Assembly (NCBI GenBank): GCA_025963385.1
Contig: JAOPUT010000243.1
Location: 1 to 64,000, forward strand
Length of the DNA: 64,000 nucleotides
Reading direction: 5' to 3'
Origin: Mycobacterium sp.
Lineage (GTDB): Bacteria; Actinomycetota; Actinomycetes; Mycobacteriales; Mycobacteriaceae
A program made the translations under genes and the position numbers. The stretch's first letter is position 1; each line of letters begins with the position of its first letter. The notes under the pieces were generated by a model. The model made no database searches and had not been told where the DNA came from. It saw only the letters and a program-made list of their open reading frames with translations. This document shows, one piece after another, positions 15,970 through 23,500 of the stretch.

Positions 15970-17550
15970 ATGACGGCTCTCAATGATGCAGAGCGCGCCG
16001 CCATCGAACGCGATGCGGAAGACGCCGGCGAGCGGGCGCTCCCCATGCCCATCACCCAAACCCAGATCGTGAAGAGCAGCTGGTACCCCACCTGGTTGCC
16101 ATCGCGCCGCTTCGTCGCCGCGGTGATCGCGATCGGCGGCATGCAGCTACTGGCCACGATGGACAGCACCGTGGCCATCGTCGCGCTGCCGAAGATCCAG
16201 GACGAGCTCAACCTGTCCGACGCGGGCCGCAGCTGGGTGATCACCGCCTACGTCTTGACCTTCGGCGGCCTGATGCTGCTCGGCGGACGCCTCGGCGACA
16301 CGATCGGCCGCAAGCGCACCTTCATCGTCGGTGTCGCGCTGTTCACCATCGCCTCCATCTTGTGCGGCGTGGCGTGGGACGAGACCACCCTCGTCATCGC
16401 GCGGCTCGCCCAGGGGGTCGGCTCAGCCATCGCGTCACCGACGGGTCTGGCGCTGATCGCCACCACGTTCCCCAAGGGGCCGGCCCGCAACACGGCCACC
16501 GCGGTGTTCGCCGCGATGACCGGTGTCGGCTCGGTGATGGGCCTCGTCGTCGGCGGCTTCCTCACCGAATTCTCGTGGCGTTGGGCGTTCCTGGTGAACG
16601 TGCCCGTCGGCCTCCTGATGATCTATCTCGCCCGCAGGACTCTGCGCGAAACGCACAAGGAGCGGATGAAGCTCGACGCGGCGGGCGCCATCCTGGCGAC
16701 CCTCGCGTGCACCGCAGCGGTGTTCGGCTTCTCGATGGGCCCCGAGAGGGGCTGGACGGCGCCGCTGACGCTGACCTCGTGCCTGGCGGCGTTCGTGTTC
16801 TTCGCGGCCTTCCTCTACGTCGAACGTACCGCGGTCAACCCCGTCGTCCCCTTCAGCCTGTTCCGCGACCGGAACCGCGTCGCCACGTTCGCGGCGGTGT
16901 TCCTCGGCGGCGGCATCATGTTCACGCTGACCGTGCTCATCGGCCTGTACGTGCAGGACATCATGGGCTACAGCGCCCTCCGCGCCGGGATCGGCTTCAT
17001 CCCGTTCGTCATCGCGCTCGGCGTCGGCCTCGGCCTGTCGTCGTACCTGGTGTCGATCTTCCCGCCGCGCCTCTTGGTGATCGGCGGCGGCGTCACGGTG
17101 CTCGCGGCGATGATCTACGGCTCGACGCTCAACGGCGACATCCCGTACTTCCCGAACCTCGTCATTCCGATCACGGTGGGCGGCTTCGGCATCGGCATGA
17201 TCGTCGTCCCGCTGACGGTGTCGGCCATCGCGGGCGTCGGTTTCGACGAGATCGGTCCGGTCTCCGCGATCGCGCTGATGCTGCAGAACCTCGGCGGCCC
17301 CGTCGTCCTGGCGATCATCCAGGCGGTCATCACGTCCAGGACGCTGTACCTCGGCGGCACCACCGGCCCGGTCAAGTTCATGGACCACGCCCAGCTGCAC
17401 GCCCTCGACCAGGGCTACACCTACGGTCTGCTGTGGGTGGCCGCGGTGGCCGTCATCGTCGGCGTCGTCGCGCTCTTCATCGGCTACACGGCCGAGCAGG
17501 TCGCCCAGGCGCAGGAAGTCAAGGAAGCGATCGACGCGGGCGAGATCTAA
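15970..17550 (+). CDS. efpA: EfpA-family MFS (DHA2) efflux transporter, copy 1
   Basis: MDSTVAIVALPKIQDELNLSDAGRSWVITAYVLTFGGLMLLGGRLGDTIGRKR; multiple TM helices; between cysG and proS as in related genomes. Confidence 0.9.
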   Translation: MTALNDAERAAIERDAEDAGERALPMPITQTQIVKSSWYPTWLPSRRFVAAVIAIGGMQLLATMDSTVAIVALPKIQDELNLSDAGRSWVITAYVLTFGGLMLLGGRLGDTIGRKRTFIVGVALFTIASILCGVAWDETTLVIARLAQGVGSAIASPTGLALIATTFPKGPARNTATAVFAAMTGVGSVMGLVVGGFLTEFSWRWAFLVNVPVGLLMIYLARRTLRETHKERMKLDAAGAILATLACTAAVFGFSMGPERGWTAPLTLTSCLAAFVFFAAFLYVERTAVNPVVPFSLFRDRNRVATFAAVFLGGGIMFTLTVLIGLYVQDIMGYSALRAGIGFIPFVIALGVGLGLSSYLVSIFPPRLLVIGGGVTVLAAMIYGSTLNGDIPYFPNLVIPITVGGFGIGMIVVPLTVSAIAGVGFDEIGPVSAIALMLQNLGGPVVLAIIQAVITSRTLYLGGTTGPVKFMDHAQLHALDQGYTYGLLWVAAVAVIVGVVALFIGYTAEQVAQAQEVKEAIDAGEI

Positions 17551-17700: not shown

Positions 17701-20700
17701 GTGATCATGTCGGTCGGTCGTGCCGAGCCAGGCTTTTCGTCGGGTGCTGCCAGATTCGTGGGGCGCGTGGGTGCGCTGGCGGTTGCGCTGGGCATCGGTT
17801 CGGCGCTGGGACACGGAGTGGGGGTCGCCCGAGCCGACGACGACGCGGGCTCGTCGAGCAGCGTGGAGCACGACGCACCGGCGCCGCACGACACCAGTTC
17901 AGTTCCGGACACCGCCGGTGTGGACGCCGGTCCGTCGGACCAAGCCGCGGAAGGTCTGCCGGAACGGGTCGCACAACGTCGGCGGGCCGCGGCCACTGGA
18001 CTCAACGAGGCCGGCGGCGGTTCCGAGACAGAGGACACGCCCGACGTCACGACGCCTCGGGCTCGCACCGTGCGCATCCACCGCGTCGACCAGGTGAGGT
18101 CTGCCGAGGACGGCCAACGAAATGCGCAGCGCGACAACGCCGGAACCGAGACCCGCTCTTCGGCGGTATCGACGGAACCCGCCGCCGCGACGAACGCGAA
18201 CGGTTCGCCGGCACCACTTGCGCCGGGCGGCCCCGGCGAGCCCGTGCTCGGCATCTTGCTGGCTGGTGCGCGTCGTGAGCCGGAGTCGACCGTGGCTACC
18301 AACGCGGTCCAGGCACGGACCGCAACGGCAGTGCCCATCGCGCCCTCGCCTGCCTACGTCCCCGCCGCCTACATCCCCACGATCGGTTTCGGACTGCTGA
18401 TCGGTCCGCACGGTTTGCTCGTCGGCAACGGGTGGGATGCCGCCGCCGATTGTGTCGGAGCGGCCTGCAACGGCGGCAACGCCGGGCTCCTGTGGGGCAA
18501 CGGCGGTAACGGAGCCAATGGCGGCCGCGGAGGAAACGCCGGGATGATCGGCAACGGTGGTGCAGGAGGCAGCGGCACGGCTCTCGGCATGGCAGGAGGG
18601 GCGGGCGGCACCGGCGGAATGGTGTGGGGCAACGGCGGACGCGGCGGCGACGGTGGACTCGGCGGCGATGGTGGCCGCGGCGGCGACGGCGGCACCTTCG
18701 CCTTCTTCGGCAATGCGGGCAACGGCGGCCGCGGTGGCGACGGCGTGCAGGGGGCGATCGGCGCGACCGGCGCGACCGGAGCCACCGGGCAGACCGGCAC
18801 CAAGGGTGCGAACGGTGCCACCGGCTCGACCGGTGTGACCGGTGCGCGTGGGTCCGACGGCGCTGACGGTGCCGACGGTGCCGACGGCGTCACGGGCGAC
18901 GTCGGCGTCGCGGGCATCGACGGGGCGACCGGCGCGCACGGCATCGACGGCGTGGACGGCATCAACGGCGCCACGGGAGCCACGGGCCGCAAGGGCGCTA
19001 CCGGGACATTGGGGGCCACCGGCGCCACCGGTTCCCGCGGATTCGATGGCATGAACCTCACCGAAGCCGACACCATCCCGGGGGCGAACGGGGTCAGCGG
19101 CGACGGGGACTATGCCGTCGGCTCGGGGCTGAGCACCATCCTCGACGCCCTCTTTGGCGACTACTACGACTTCGGCGACAACGGCTGGGTGGGCTACCCA
19201 GGCACCGATGGACAGCGCGGCGGACCCGGCGGCCGCGGTGGTGACGGCGGAAACTCTTCCGGCACGCTCCTCATCGGGGATTCCTATGGTGGCCCCGCGG
19301 GCAACGGCGGCCCCGGCTGGAATGACATCGGGGGACGGGGCGGCGATGGCGGCACCGGCGGTAGCGCGAGGGCTTACGGAGTCCACGACATCGCCATCGG
19401 CAGGGCGGGTGGCAACGGTGGCAACGGCGGCACGGGTGCCGCCGGATTCCAGGGCGGCGCGGGAGATACGGGCGGCAGTGGCGGCACGGGTGGCGACGGC
19501 ACTGCCGGCGGCCGCGGCGGCGACGGCACCGATGGAACCGATGGCGCCGCAGGTGGTGCCGGCGGGGACGGCACCGCCGGTGGAGTCGGCGGGAACGGCG
19601 CGGACGGCGTCGTCGGCGACGCTGGTCGATCCGGGCTGCAGGGCGAGACCGGTGGAGAAGGCGGCACCGGCGGCGATGGCTCGACGGGTGCGGGCGGCGG
19701 TACCGGCGGACAAGGCGCAACGGGTGGCGTCGGCGGAACGGGCGTCAGGGCCGGAGCCGGCGGAGCGGGCGGAAGCGTCGGGCTCTTCGGCCTGTTCGGC
19801 AACGGCGGTCTTGGAGGCAGCGGTGGCCTCGGCGGGATCGGCGGAACCGGCGGCACCGGCGGGACGGGCGGCGTCGGAGGAACGGGTGGCGAAGGCGGCG
19901 ACTCGGGTGACGGAGGGATCGGCGGGATCGGCGGCGCCGGTGGCGGCGGCGGTCACGGTGGACAGGGCGGCGATGCGGGTGACGGAGGAACCGGCGGCCG
20001 GGGCGGCAACGCGGGTGACGGTGGTACCGGCGGCCGGGGTGGCGACGCGGGTGACGGCGGCTCCGGTGGGGTTGGCGGTGCCGGCGGTGGCGGCGGCGCG
20101 GGTGGCACGGGTGGCAAGGGTGGGACCGGTGGTGGAGGTGCCGTCGGCGGCAAGGGTGGCAACGGCGGCTTCGGCGGCACTGCATACAACTCCAGCGGCC
20201 ACTACTACTCCGAATACCTTGATTCAACGGTGTTTTCGGGCGCAGCCGGTCTCGGCGGCAAGGGCGGCGCCGGGGGTGCCGGCGGCGCCGGGGGCGTCGG
20301 CGGGCCCGGGGGAGCCGGAGGAACGGCCGGCGCGGCGGGAGCAGGCGGTGCGGGCGGTCGCGCGGCAACCTACGCAGGCGTCGGTGCAGCGGGTGGTGTG
20401 GCCGGTAGCGCGGCCGCCGGAGGTGCCGGTGGCGCGGCAGGCCTCGCAGCCGACGGAGGTCTCGGAGGTGCAGGCGGCGCGGGCGGGTTCGGCGGAGTCG
20501 GCGGTGCCGCGGGAATCGCAGGGGCCGGCGGCACCGGCGGCGCGGCGGGGAGCGGCGGAGCCGGCGGCGCAGGTGGTGGTGGCGGAACGGGAGGTGCCGC
20601 AGGCGCGGGCGGAGCCGGTGGATGGTTCGGGACCCGGGGCGCCGATGGTATCGCGGGTGCCAACGGTGCCAACGGTGCCACCGGCTCGACGGGCGCAGGG

Positions 20701-21060
20701 GGAGCGACGGGGGCCGTCGGCGCCACGGGCGGCGCCGGCAGGACCGGAGCCGCCGGTGCCAGAGGTGGCAGCGGAGCCGTCGGTGCCACGGGAGCGAACG
20801 GCGCCCGCGGAGCCAACGGCAAGGCCGGGCAGGCAGGCTTGGACGGCCTCATCGCGGTCGACGGTGTCTCAGGCGCCGACGGCACGTCCGGGACCGACGG
20901 GGCCACCGGCCTCTCGGGGGCCGCGGGCGCGCAGGGTGCGCAAGGTCAGAAGGGCGCAACTGGGGCTGCGGGCGCGGCGGGCCAGAACGGGGACGACGGC
21001 TTGGACGGTTACCCAGGTCTGGGATACCGACCTGGCGGCTCAGGCAACGTAGCCAACTAG
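17701..21060 (+). CDS. Secreted Gly-rich PGRS-like protein with collagen-like G-X-Y blocks and no PE domain
   Basis: Signal peptide-like N-terminus (RFVGRVGALAVALGIGSALGHGVGVARA|DD), IGPHGLLVGNGWDAAADCVGAACNGGNAGLLWGNGGNGANGG junction, GGxGGxGG repeats, long GXY blocks; start GTG 17701 or ATG 17707. Confidence 0.9.
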   Translation: MIMSVGRAEPGFSSGAARFVGRVGALAVALGIGSALGHGVGVARADDDAGSSSSVEHDAPAPHDTSSVPDTAGVDAGPSDQAAEGLPERVAQRRRAAATGLNEAGGGSETEDTPDVTTPRARTVRIHRVDQVRSAEDGQRNAQRDNAGTETRSSAVSTEPAAATNANGSPAPLAPGGPGEPVLGILLAGARREPESTVATNAVQARTATAVPIAPSPAYVPAAYIPTIGFGLLIGPHGLLVGNGWDAAADCVGAACNGGNAGLLWGNGGNGANGGRGGNAGMIGNGGAGGSGTALGMAGGAGGTGGMVWGNGGRGGDGGLGGDGGRGGDGGTFAFFGNAGNGGRGGDGVQGAIGATGATGATGQTGTKGANGATGSTGVTGARGSDGADGADGADGVTGDVGVAGIDGATGAHGIDGVDGINGATGATGRKGATGTLGATGATGSRGFDGMNLTEADTIPGANGVSGDGDYAVGSGLSTILDALFGDYYDFGDNGWVGYPGTDGQRGGPGGRGGDGGNSSGTLLIGDSYGGPAGNGGPGWNDIGGRGGDGGTGGSARAYGVHDIAIGRAGGNGGNGGTGAAGFQGGAGDTGGSGGTGGDGTAGGRGGDGTDGTDGAAGGAGGDGTAGGVGGNGADGVVGDAGRSGLQGETGGEGGTGGDGSTGAGGGTGGQGATGGVGGTGVRAGAGGAGGSVGLFGLFGNGGLGGSGGLGGIGGTGGTGGTGGVGGTGGEGGDSGDGGIGGIGGAGGGGGHGGQGGDAGDGGTGGRGGNAGDGGTGGRGGDAGDGGSGGVGGAGGGGGAGGTGGKGGTGGGGAVGGKGGNGGFGGTAYNSSGHYYSEYLDSTVFSGAAGLGGKGGAGGAGGAGGVGGPGGAGGTAGAAGAGGAGGRAATYAGVGAAGGVAGSAAAGGAGGAAGLAADGGLGGAGGAGGFGGVGGAAGIAGAGGTGGAAGSGGAGGAGGGGGTGGAAGAGGAGGWFGTRGADGIAGANGANGATGSTGAGGATGAVGATGGAGRTGAAGARGGSGAVGATGANGARGANGKAGQAGLDGLIAVDGVSGADGTSGTDGATGLSGAAGAQGAQGQKGATGAAGAAGQNGDDGLDGYPGLGYRPGGSGNVAN
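18742..19056 (+). repeat. Collagen-like block 1: 35 uninterrupted G-X-Y triplets
   Basis: GVQ GAI GAT GAT GAT GQT GTK GAN GAT GST GVT GAR GSD GAD GAD GAD ... GSR GFD GMN read directly in frame. Confidence 0.9.
19204..20628 (+). repeat. PGRS-like GGxGGxGG-rich block
   Basis: Dense GGN/GGT/GGD/GGA repeats, interrupted by short tyrosine-rich stretches (e.g. YNSSGHYYSEYLDSTVFSG). Confidence 0.85.
20629..21024 (+). repeat. Collagen-like block 2 with a single AVD interruption
   Basis: GTR GAD GIA GAN GAN GAT GST ... GLD GLI [AVD] GVS GAD GTS ... GDD GLD GYP GLG. Confidence 0.88.
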
Positions 21061-21273
21061 TCTGCGCGGATGCTCCGGACCACGCTCGTCGAACCGGGCG
21101 TCGTCCGCACCGGAGTCTTCGACGCCGCGACGCGAGTCCCGCCCGGCGCCCTACCGCGGCGGGCCCGCGGTCCGGCCGCCGCAGCGGGACAACGCCGCGA
21201 CCGCCGATTTCGGGTAGCCGGCGCGGTCGGTCTTCGGTTTCGACGGGGCGAGCCGTGGGTAGGGTGTCTGGCA

Positions 21274-22779
21274 ATGTCTGCCGCGGGTGGTTCTTCAGGG
21301 TCGACTGAGCACTCGACAGCGCCATTGGCATCGTCCGTCCTCGGCATCGCGATCGTCGCCATCACGGGCATGCAGCTCATGTCGACGCTCGACGGCACCA
21401 TCGTCATCGTCGCGCTGCCCCGCATGCAGGCCGATCTCGACCTGTCCGACGCGGGCAAGAGCTGGGTCATCACCGCCTACGTGCTGACGTTCGGCGGGCT
21501 GCTGCTGCTCGGGGGTCGGGTCGGTGACGCCATCGGCCAGAAGCGCGCCTTCCTCTCTGGCGTCGGCGTCTTCACCATCGCCTCGCTGGTGTGCGGGTTG
21601 GCCAACGACGAATACACCCTGATCGCCGCCCGTGCGCTGCAGGGCATGGGTGCCGCGGTCGCCGCCCCGACCGGGCTGGCGCTCATCGCCACGACGTACG
21701 CCGTCGGGCACGCCCGTAACCAGGCCATGGCGGTGTCGGCGGGGATGCAGGCCATCGGCTCGGTGCTCGGTCTGGTGCTCGGCGGCCTGCTCACCGTCAT
21801 CTCGTGGCGGCTGGCGTTCCTGATGAACGTCCCGATCGGCATCGTCATCGTCGTCATCGCCTGGCTACGGATCGGCGAGACGCACCACGAACGGCTCAAA
21901 CTCGACGTGACGGGTGCGCTCCTGGCCACGTTGGGGTGCACGTCGGCGGTGCTGGTGTTCACCCAGGGCCCGCCACGTGGCTGGCTCGATCCGTGGGTGG
22001 TCGGCGCGGCCGTCGCCGCGGTGGTCTTCTTCGTCTCGTTCCTCTTCGCCGAGCGCACCGCCGAGAACCCGCTGGTGCCGTTCTCGGTCTTCAGCGAGCG
22101 CAACCGGGTGGCGACACTGATCTCATGGTTCCTCGGCGGAGGCGTGCTGCTGACCGTCACCGTGATGGTCGGCCTGCTGGCCCAGGACGTCCTCGGCTAC
22201 TCGGCGCTGCGGGCAGGAATCTGCTTCCTGCCGTTCGCGGTCGCCGTCGGTGTCGGCAACGTGCTGGCCACCAAGCTGTGCCCGCTGATCGCGCCACGCT
22301 GGCTGATCATCGGCGGCGGCCTGTTCGTGCTGGCCGCGATGCTCTACGGCTCCACGCTGAACCGCAGCATCCCGTACTTCCCCGATCTGTTCCTGCCGAT
22401 CGTGGTCGGCGGGTTCGGGATCGGCATCATCTCGGTGGTCCTGCCGCTGTGCGCGGTGGCCGGGGTAGGACCCCGCGAGATCGGTCCGGTGTCGGCGATC
22501 ACGCTCATGGTGCAGAACCTGGGCGGCCCGCTGGTCCTGGTCATGATCATGGCGGTGCAGACCTCGCGCACGCTGTATCTCGGCGGGACGACGGGGCCGG
22601 TGAAGAACATGACACCCGCCCAGCTCGACGCGCTCGGCTACGGCTACACGTATTCACTGCTGTGGGTCGCGGGCGTTTCCATCCTGGTGGGCATCGCCGC
22701 GTTCTGGATCGGGTTCTCCGCCCGCGACATCGCCAGGGCGCAGCACACGAAGGAAGCCGTCGAGGCAGGCGAGTTGTAG
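21274..22779 (+). CDS. EfpA-family MFS transporter, copy 2 (paralogue of 15970..17550)
   Basis: LDGTIVIVALPRMQADLDLSDAGKSWVITAYVLTFGGLLLLGGRVGDAIGQKR; shared SRTLYLGGTTGPVK and C-terminal KEAxxAGEL. Confidence 0.9.
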   Translation: MSAAGGSSGSTEHSTAPLASSVLGIAIVAITGMQLMSTLDGTIVIVALPRMQADLDLSDAGKSWVITAYVLTFGGLLLLGGRVGDAIGQKRAFLSGVGVFTIASLVCGLANDEYTLIAARALQGMGAAVAAPTGLALIATTYAVGHARNQAMAVSAGMQAIGSVLGLVLGGLLTVISWRLAFLMNVPIGIVIVVIAWLRIGETHHERLKLDVTGALLATLGCTSAVLVFTQGPPRGWLDPWVVGAAVAAVVFFVSFLFAERTAENPLVPFSVFSERNRVATLISWFLGGGVLLTVTVMVGLLAQDVLGYSALRAGICFLPFAVAVGVGNVLATKLCPLIAPRWLIIGGGLFVLAAMLYGSTLNRSIPYFPDLFLPIVVGGFGIGIISVVLPLCAVAGVGPREIGPVSAITLMVQNLGGPLVLVMIMAVQTSRTLYLGGTTGPVKNMTPAQLDALGYGYTYSLLWVAGVSILVGIAAFWIGFSARDIARAQHTKEAVEAGEL

Positions 22780-22816: not shown

Positions 22817-23500
22817 ATGACCGCCCCACTGACGCGCCAACAGATCTCCGAGGCGGTCGACCCACTGGGTTGGCGGCTGATCCTCGGGGTCGCCGTCACC
22901 CACGTCGCGGTGCCGTCGCTGACCGCCGCGGCCGCCGCCGCCTCGATCGCGGTCTCGGCCGTGGGTGCCGATGGTGACGGGCATCTGAGCGCCGACCTGC
23001 ACTCCGATCGCGTCGTCCTGCGCCTGCACACCGCGAGCGTCGGCACGGTCACCGCCGACGACCTCGGGCTGGCGCACCGGGTGACCGAGGCGCTGGCCGC
23101 GCAGGAGCTGAGCACCGTGCCTGGCGACGGATTCGCGGTGCCGCAGAACCTGGAGATCGCCATCGATGCCCTCGACATCCGACTGATCAGGCCATTCTGG
23201 AAGGCCGTCACGGGTTATGTCGAACAACCAGGCCCGCCAGACCTGCCCGACGGTGCGCTACTCGACCCGCTCCGGCGCGGGCCTGCGATCTGGTTCCAGC
23301 AGATGGACGAGCCGCGCAACCAGCGCAACCGCATCCACCTCGACGTCGACGTGCCGCCGGAACACGCCAAGGCCCGTATCGACGCGGCGGTGGCCGCGGG
23401 TGGCACGCTGCTGTCGGCGGATCGTGCGCCCGCGTTCTGGGTGCTCGCCGATCCCGAGGGCAACGAGGTGTGCGTCTGCACGTGGCAGGGGCGCGACTAG
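22817..23500 (+). CDS. VOC/glyoxalase-like protein with N-terminal degenerate pterin-4a-carbinolamine dehydratase-like domain
   Basis: N-terminal LTRQQISEAVDPLGWR...VVLRLHTASVGTVTADDLGLAHRVTEAL; C-terminal RIHLDVDVPPEHAKARIDAAVAAGGTLL...WVLADPEGNEVCVC. Confidence 0.75.
   Translation: MTAPLTRQQISEAVDPLGWRLILGVAVTHVAVPSLTAAAAAASIAVSAVGADGDGHLSADLHSDRVVLRLHTASVGTVTADDLGLAHRVTEALAAQELSTVPGDGFAVPQNLEIAIDALDIRLIRPFWKAVTGYVEQPGPPDLPDGALLDPLRRGPAIWFQQMDEPRNQRNRIHLDVDVPPEHAKARIDAAVAAGGTLLSADRAPAFWVLADPEGNEVCVCTWQGRD

What the first reader, a model, noticed from the sequence alone, without database searches (positions are those of the whole stretch)
17701..21060. Chimeric surface protein: Sec-type signal, PGRS core and collagen-like G-X-Y arms, without a PE domain
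The N-terminus is a signal peptide-like segment (ALAVALGIGSALGHGVGVARA-DD) rather than a PE domain. It is followed by a Cys-pair junction (DCVGAACNGGNAGLLWGNGGNGANGG). The body switches between strict G-X-Y triplets and GGxGGxGG PGRS-type repeats, so collagen-like and PGRS/polyglycine-II-like architectures are combined in one chain. Export without PE/ESX-5 would be a different route to the PGRS surface.
Basis: partly seen in the sequence, partly recalled or inferred. Interest (0 to 1): 0.72.

Follow-up and report, generated by a model that had tools for sequence, protein, structure and literature searches.

The report
Sec-exported PGRS–collagen hybrid surface protein
An environmental mycobacterium encodes a large glycine-rich protein built like the PGRS surface proteins of tuberculosis bacteria but with an ordinary secretion signal in place of the usual PE domain and with collagen-like segments added; it belongs to a family of PE-less PGRS proteins found in genomes that seem to lack the dedicated ESX-5 export route.

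Summary
One intact ORF (likely start ATG 17707, stop 21060) encodes a signal peptide with an AxA|D site, a polar linker, a Cys-pair junction, PGRS blocks and two collagen-like arms (35 strict G-X-Y triplets; shuffled maximum 6). No PE domain is found.

It is not a one-off. The junction profile finds PE-less PGRS proteins in 27 of 401 Mycobacteriaceae genomes and 56 named loci (mostly Mycolicibacterium, some Williamsia). None of 53 N-termini hits PE; 52 look like signal peptides (6 of 25 cytosolic controls). At least six relatives share the PGRS-plus-collagen layout. Carrier genomes have 0–6 PE domains, and the carriers tested show no ESX-5-type EccB.

The junction is still homologous to the GRPLI–PGRS start of true PE_PGRS. 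AlphaFold2 folds the first PGRS block well (pLDDT 84); its only PDB matches are polyglycine-II antifreeze bundles. The collagen arms stay unfolded as monomers.

Best reading: a Sec-exported cell-envelope protein with PGRS as anchor and G-X-Y arms as spacers. A 2025 review saw PGRS proteins in M. smegmatis but left their N-termini unresolved; this addresses that. Passage through the mycomembrane, and function, remain inferred.

The parts
   Evidence: open frame; full-length relatives
17707..17835 (+). signal peptide, aa 3-45, predicted signal peptidase I site VARA|DDD
   Evidence: conserved module A4 with invariant A-x-A-D; hydropathy rule with control
17836..18375 (+). polar linker aa 46-225; contains EPVLGILLAGARRE (aa 180-193, 18238-18279), a weaker form of a motif that follows the signal module in other proteins
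   Evidence: sequence; (loose motif scan, no control)
18376..18486 (+). junction aa 226-262 with Cys251 and Cys256 (D-C-x-G-x-x-C-N-G-G)
   Evidence: profile A1, DNA pattern, homology to GRPLI-PGRS start
18469..18741 (+). PGRS block 1, aa 257-347
   Evidence: Pfam PGRS just under cut-off; AlphaFold2 pLDDT 84; PGII bundle matches
18742..19056 (+). collagen-like arm 1, aa 348-452, 35 strict G-X-Y triplets
19057..19212 (+). non-repetitive insert, aa 453-504
   Evidence: sequence
19213..19776 (+). PGRS block 2 with mixed G-X-Y stretches, aa 505-692
19777..20190 (+). PGRS block 3 (GLFGLFGNGG start), aa 693-830
   Evidence: pLDDT 63-84 near its start
20191..20619 (+). Tyr-containing insert followed by GGA-rich block, aa 831-973
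20620..21024 (+). collagen-like arm 2, aa 974-1108, with interruptions
21074..21177 (+). remnant of a short-chain dehydrogenase gene that is whole in relative G330
   Evidence: 88.7% identity over 106 columns
15970..17550 (+). flanking DHA2 efflux gene (EfpA-like), context only
21274..22779 (+). flanking second DHA2 efflux gene, context only

Best explanation
It is a Sec-exported, PE-independent PGRS protein. The signal peptide takes the chain across the inner membrane and is removed after Ala45. Outside, the Cys251-Cys256 pair probably closes a disulfide loop that caps the first PGRS block. The PGRS blocks fold into polyglycine-II sandwiches whose hydrophobic loops seat in the cell envelope, as proposed for PE_PGRS. 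The Thr-rich, Pro-poor G-X-Y arms act as long, possibly O-mannosylated, possibly trimeric spacers of a surface or matrix protein. Shown by computation: signal-type N-terminus, no PE, homology of the PGRS start to PE_PGRS, a family of relatives, a PGII-like model for block 1. Inferred: cleavage, disulfide, passage through the mycomembrane, trimerisation, glycosylation, adhesion or coat function.
For: No PE in the target or in 53 family N-termini; conserved signal module with AxA|D site used by unrelated exported bodies; 52 of 53 signal-like against 6 of 25 controls; carriers have 0-6 PE domains and no ESX-5-type EccB where tested; junction homologous to GRPLI-PGRS; block 1 model and PGII matches; six relatives with the same layout.
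Against: No SignalP or experiment. Target's PGRS score is below the Pfam cut-off. Many family members lack a clear cleavage site in my simple rule. Foldseek TM-scores are low, about 0.3. G000 is incomplete (91%), so absence of ESX-5 there is not proof. Nothing shows how it would pass the mycomembrane.
Confidence: 0.7

Rival explanations
1. The N-terminal segment is an uncleaved signal anchor: the protein hangs from the inner membrane into the periplasm and never reaches the surface; the glycine-rich body spans or organises the cell wall.
For: Several family members have a hydrophobic segment without a clear AxA site; Sec alone does not cross the mycomembrane.
Against: The target's own signal module has an invariant A-x-A-D context in eight unrelated proteins.
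Confidence: 0.2
2. The G-X-Y arms are not functional collagen but repeat drift of PGRS-type triplets, serving at most as disordered filler.
For: The arms contain nearly no Pro (0 and 1 residues) and stay at low confidence as monomers; GC-rich repeat genes expand and contract easily (general knowledge).
Against: Arms recur at the same two places in relatives from two genera, and 35 strict triplets lie far outside shuffles.
Confidence: 0.25
3. It is a degenerate PE_PGRS that lost its PE domain and gained a signal peptide in this lineage only.
For: Homologous junction; this signal module fused to PGRS was seen only in the target.
Against: Dozens of PE-less members with a conserved Cys-pair junction in several genera, and few PE genes in those genomes.
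Confidence: 0.05

Closest known systems
PE_PGRS proteins of slow-growing mycobacteria (Pfam PGRS PF21526, GRPLI junction)
   Same: PGRS repeats and a homologous LIGNG...GGLLxGNGG start of the domain
   Different: signal peptide instead of PE; Cys pair in the junction; collagen-like arms; few PE genes and no ESX-5-type EccB found in carriers
PGRS-domain proteins of M. smegmatis and Mycolicibacterium noted by Chen et al. 2025 (PMC11939664)
   Same: very likely the same PE-less family (fast growers, clear PGRS domain)
   Different: that paper leaves the N-terminus and localisation unresolved and does not mention collagen; I could not identify the M. smegmatis genes by name here
Bacterial collagen-like surface proteins (Pfam Collagen PF01391; Scl1/Scl2, BclA, Lcl)
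   Same: strict G-X-Y runs and Pfam Collagen matches; weak Scl/Lcl model hits
   Different: far below Scl/Lcl curated cut-offs, no LPXTG anchor, almost no Pro, arms alternate with PGRS blocks
Springtail and snow flea antifreeze proteins (polyglycine-II / PPII bundles, PDB 7jjv, 3bog, 2pne)
   Same: fold type of PGRS block 1 by Foldseek, best E 1.7e-3
   Different: low TM-score (about 0.3), unrelated function and origin

Membership tests
PE_PGRS | N-terminal PE domain (PF00934) | tested here: not met
   no match in the target or in 53 family N-termini
PE_PGRS | PGRS glycine-rich repeats | tested here: met
   Pfam PGRS 23.3-24.6 bits, under the 27-bit cut-off in the target, but 46 of 53 family members match; junction homology
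PE_PGRS | GRPLI motif before the repeats | tested here: inconclusive
   literal GRPLI absent from the target; several relatives have RP[LMI]IG; profiles align
PE_PGRS | ESX-5-dependent secretion | not testable with these tools
   no ESX-5-type EccB found in the incomplete genome
Sec-exported protein | n-region, hydrophobic core and AxA cleavage site; no Tat or lipobox motif | tested here: met
   sequence; rule-based, no SignalP
PE-less PGRS family described here | Cys-pair LIGNG-type junction heading PGRS | tested here: met
   A1 match E 5.5e-26 (the target is one of the ten A1 rows), DNA pattern match
Bacterial collagen-like protein | long uninterrupted G-X-Y repeats | tested here: met
   35 triplets, Pfam Collagen 1.6e-13
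Bacterial collagen-like protein | trimeric triple helix | not testable with these tools
   arms at low confidence in a monomer model; nearly no Pro
Scl/Lcl collagen-like adhesins | match over curated cut-off, LPXTG anchor (Scl) | tested here: not met
   44.8, 44.2 and 21.2 bits against cut-offs 325, 400 and 500; C-terminus GYRPGGSGNVAN
Polyglycine-II bundle | antiparallel PGII helices packed in a sandwich | tested here: inconclusive
   confident model whose only four PDB matches are PGII/PPII antifreeze bundles, best E 1.7e-3, TM about 0.3

The most novel reading that the evidence does not exclude
PGRS is an older, Sec-exported envelope module of Mycobacteriaceae that PE proteins captured when ESX-5 appeared. 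The PGRS-collagen members are a distinct kind of bacterial surface fibre in which polyglycine-II sandwiches and collagen-type triple helices alternate in one chain.
Probability: 0.3. Interest if true: 0.8.

Novelty: new variant of a known kind. Interest (0 to 1): 0.6.

Why it matters
PGRS domains are usually discussed as PE/ESX-5 cargo of slow-growing pathogens, and the origin of the domain is open. A family with a signal peptide in place of PE, in genomes with few PE genes and (where tested) no ESX-5-type EccB, lets PGRS folding, anchoring and surface placement be tested without type VII secretion, in fast growers. It also addresses the question left open by Chen et al. 2025 about the N-termini of fast-grower PGRS proteins. 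The collagen-like arms offer a natural case of two glycine-based helical folds combined in one chain.

Tried and rejected
Frame artefact: rejected, relatives align along the body in the same frame. Tat signal and lipoprotein: rejected by sequence (no twin arginine before the hydrophobic core, no Cys before aa 251). Orthologue at the same locus in the nearest relative: not there, G330 has LysR and SDR genes. Pfam PGRS search of genomes was silent even in controls, so uninformative; replaced by the junction profile A1 and an exhaustive DNA pattern. Absence of A1 matches in PE-rich genomes was not trusted on its own, since only 15-20 of up to 309 candidates were scored; the DNA pattern covers only the strict Cys-pair form. 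Full-length AlphaFold2 model: low confidence outside PGRS block 1. Viral fold library: no significant match. Sequence search of solved structures: nothing meaningful. Papers on collagen-like proteins in mycobacteria: none relevant found.

Full report
What is there. The window lies in a 6.4-Mb, 418-contig mycobacterial assembly (91% complete, 6.6% contamination). The ORF at 17701-21060 is intact. The likely start is ATG 17707, five bases after GGGAG. Along the chain: aa 3-45 signal peptide; aa 46-225 polar linker; aa 226-262 junction with Cys251 and Cys256, the only cysteines; PGRS block 1; collagen-like arm 1 (aa 348-452, 35 strict triplets); a short non-repetitive insert; PGRS blocks 2 and 3; a GGA-rich block; a C-terminal collagen-like arm (aa 974-1108). 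Shuffling the glycine-rich body 500 times never gave more than 6 consecutive strict triplets. Pfam gives Collagen 1.6e-13, PGRS just below cut-off, and no PE domain.

Surroundings. The gene stands between two tandem DHA2 (EfpA-like) efflux genes, downstream of cysG and upstream of proS (cysG and proS named from the sequence). In most relatives that have both efflux genes these are neighbours, about 60-270 bases apart by their match coordinates. In the closest relative, G330 (94% identity in the second efflux protein), LysR-like and short-chain dehydrogenase-like genes lie between them. A dehydrogenase remnant of about 100 bases (88.7% identity) remains just after the stop codon of our gene. 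So the PGRS-collagen gene most likely replaced LysR-SDR in this lineage; that order of events is inference.

The N-terminus. The signal peptide belongs to a reusable module. Eight proteins aligned (A4) share GRxGxLAVALGxG and an invariant A-x-A-D context, yet carry different bodies: DUF4185, an S15/CocE-type hydrolase, cadherin/Ig repeats, a beta-propeller. The module occurs in 35 of 61 genomes of the genus, up to 29 times in one, and was not found in G085, G285, G069 and G124. Among PGRS proteins fetched, only the target has this exact module; L074 (Mycobacterium sp. ACS4331) has a similar second motif, DWVVLGFARRQ.

The family. A profile of the junction (A1) matches in 27 of 401 Mycobacteriaceae genomes (19 of the same genus, 8 of three other genera), up to 8 per genome. 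In an order-wide sample of 299 genomes no other family matched. In the named collection it gives 56 loci, mostly Mycolicibacterium, some Williamsia. Of 53 N-termini scanned with Pfam, 46 hit PGRS and none hit PE. With a simple hydropathy and charge rule 52 of 53 look like signal peptides or anchors; a similar rule with free choice of start accepts 6 of 25 window genes chosen as cytosolic. My start choice favours hydrophobic starts, which is why the control matters.

PGRS-collagen subfamily. L065 (M. arenosum), L080 (M. deserti), L082 (M. sp. AT1), L084 (Williamsia sp. CHRR-6), L110 (M. lacusdiani) and L212 (genome G400) share the overall layout: PGRS block 1, G-X-Y arm, PGRS blocks, GGA-rich block, C-terminal G-X-Y arm. 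In this genome all Pfam Collagen matches at E up to 1e-6 fall inside the target gene; in G018 and G400 they fall in the ORF that carries the junction.

Relation to PE_PGRS. The junction profile aligns with the GRPLI-PGRS junction of 12 PE_PGRS proteins at hhalign probability 98.2, score 68; sixty column shuffles that keep the glycine pattern reach at most 31. Another PGRS repeat stretch of the PE-less proteins also scores 53.9, as expected for a repeat family. An exhaustive DNA pattern for the Cys pair is found in 21 of the 27 carrier genomes and in none of six comparison genomes, with a single match for the reversed control. Five of those six have 72 to at least 111 PE domains and one has 13; carriers have 0-6. 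An EccB tree has a clade made only of G085 and G267 sequences, which I assign to ESX-5 from memory of its N-terminal sequence. No EccB of the carriers G000, G224, G232, G273 or G094 falls in it. One long-branch EccB of G232 is unplaced and one G085 sequence was left out by my ORF filter.

Structure. AlphaFold2 on block 1 with 50 sequences gives mean pLDDT 84.4 and pTM 0.75. Its only PDB matches at E up to 10 are springtail and snow flea antifreeze proteins, which are polyglycine-II/PPII bundles (best E 1.7e-3, TM about 0.3). In the 914-residue model block 1 is again confident while arm 1 has pLDDT of roughly 26-40. The hydrophobic loops LLW, MVW, FF, LFGLF and WF recall the hydrophobic edge that Berisio and Delogu propose to seat PGRS in the mycomembrane (PMC9436101).

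How it most likely works. Sec export, cleavage after Ala45, oxidation of the Cys pair, folding of PGRS blocks into envelope-seated sandwiches, and G-X-Y arms as spacers. The arms are Thr-rich and nearly Pro-free, so a triple helix would be weak on its own. Mycobacteria O-mannosylate some Sec-exported proteins (own knowledge), which could stabilise Thr-rich arms. Transit through the mycomembrane is unexplained.

What is known. Gey van Pittius et al. 2006 found no PE_PGRS genes in fast growers (PMC1660551), and a 2020 review places the emergence of pe_pgrs in slow growers (PMC7550000). Chen et al. 2025 report PGRS-domain proteins in M. smegmatis and Mycolicibacterium but call the annotation of their N-termini questionable and their localisation disputable (PMC11939664). 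I found no paper describing a signal-peptide PGRS family or PGRS-collagen hybrids, in an open-access library only.

Verdict. Real, not an artefact, and part of a family: a new variant of a known kind. The Sec-type N-terminus rests on good sequence evidence. Function and surface placement are inference.

Noticed in passing
window 17743-17874; loci L002, L003, L005, L006, L010, L012, L015, L164-L193: A signal peptide with unusually conserved sequence (GRxGxLAVALGxG...AxAD) heads many different exported proteins, up to 29 per genome, often followed by a Ser/Thr-rich linker and a P-x-LWxLLAxARRE motif (21 of 31 by a loose pattern, no control). No NCBIfam model covers it; it could be a sorting module comparable to YSIRK signals.
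   Followed up: partly
window 21074-21177: Remnant of a short-chain dehydrogenase gene; with the LysR-like gene it is whole in relative G330, suggesting a gene replacement between the tandem efflux genes.
   Followed up: partly
L210 (genome G052, contig C1 near 621475-621909): A different collagen-matching protein: a long GTSGTS repeat with DxDGDG segments and a C-terminal hydrophobic stretch plus SRRDGGWWF tail.
   Followed up: no
L085, L086, L088, L091, L093, L101, L117: PE-less PGRS proteins with an extra domain of about 200 aa (HLAISINGELKHQEGTA...) between signal and PGRS; one member of the set matches DUF3060.
   Followed up: no
window 22817-23500: Fusion of a pterin carbinolamine dehydratase-like and a glyoxalase-like domain next to proS.
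   Followed up: no
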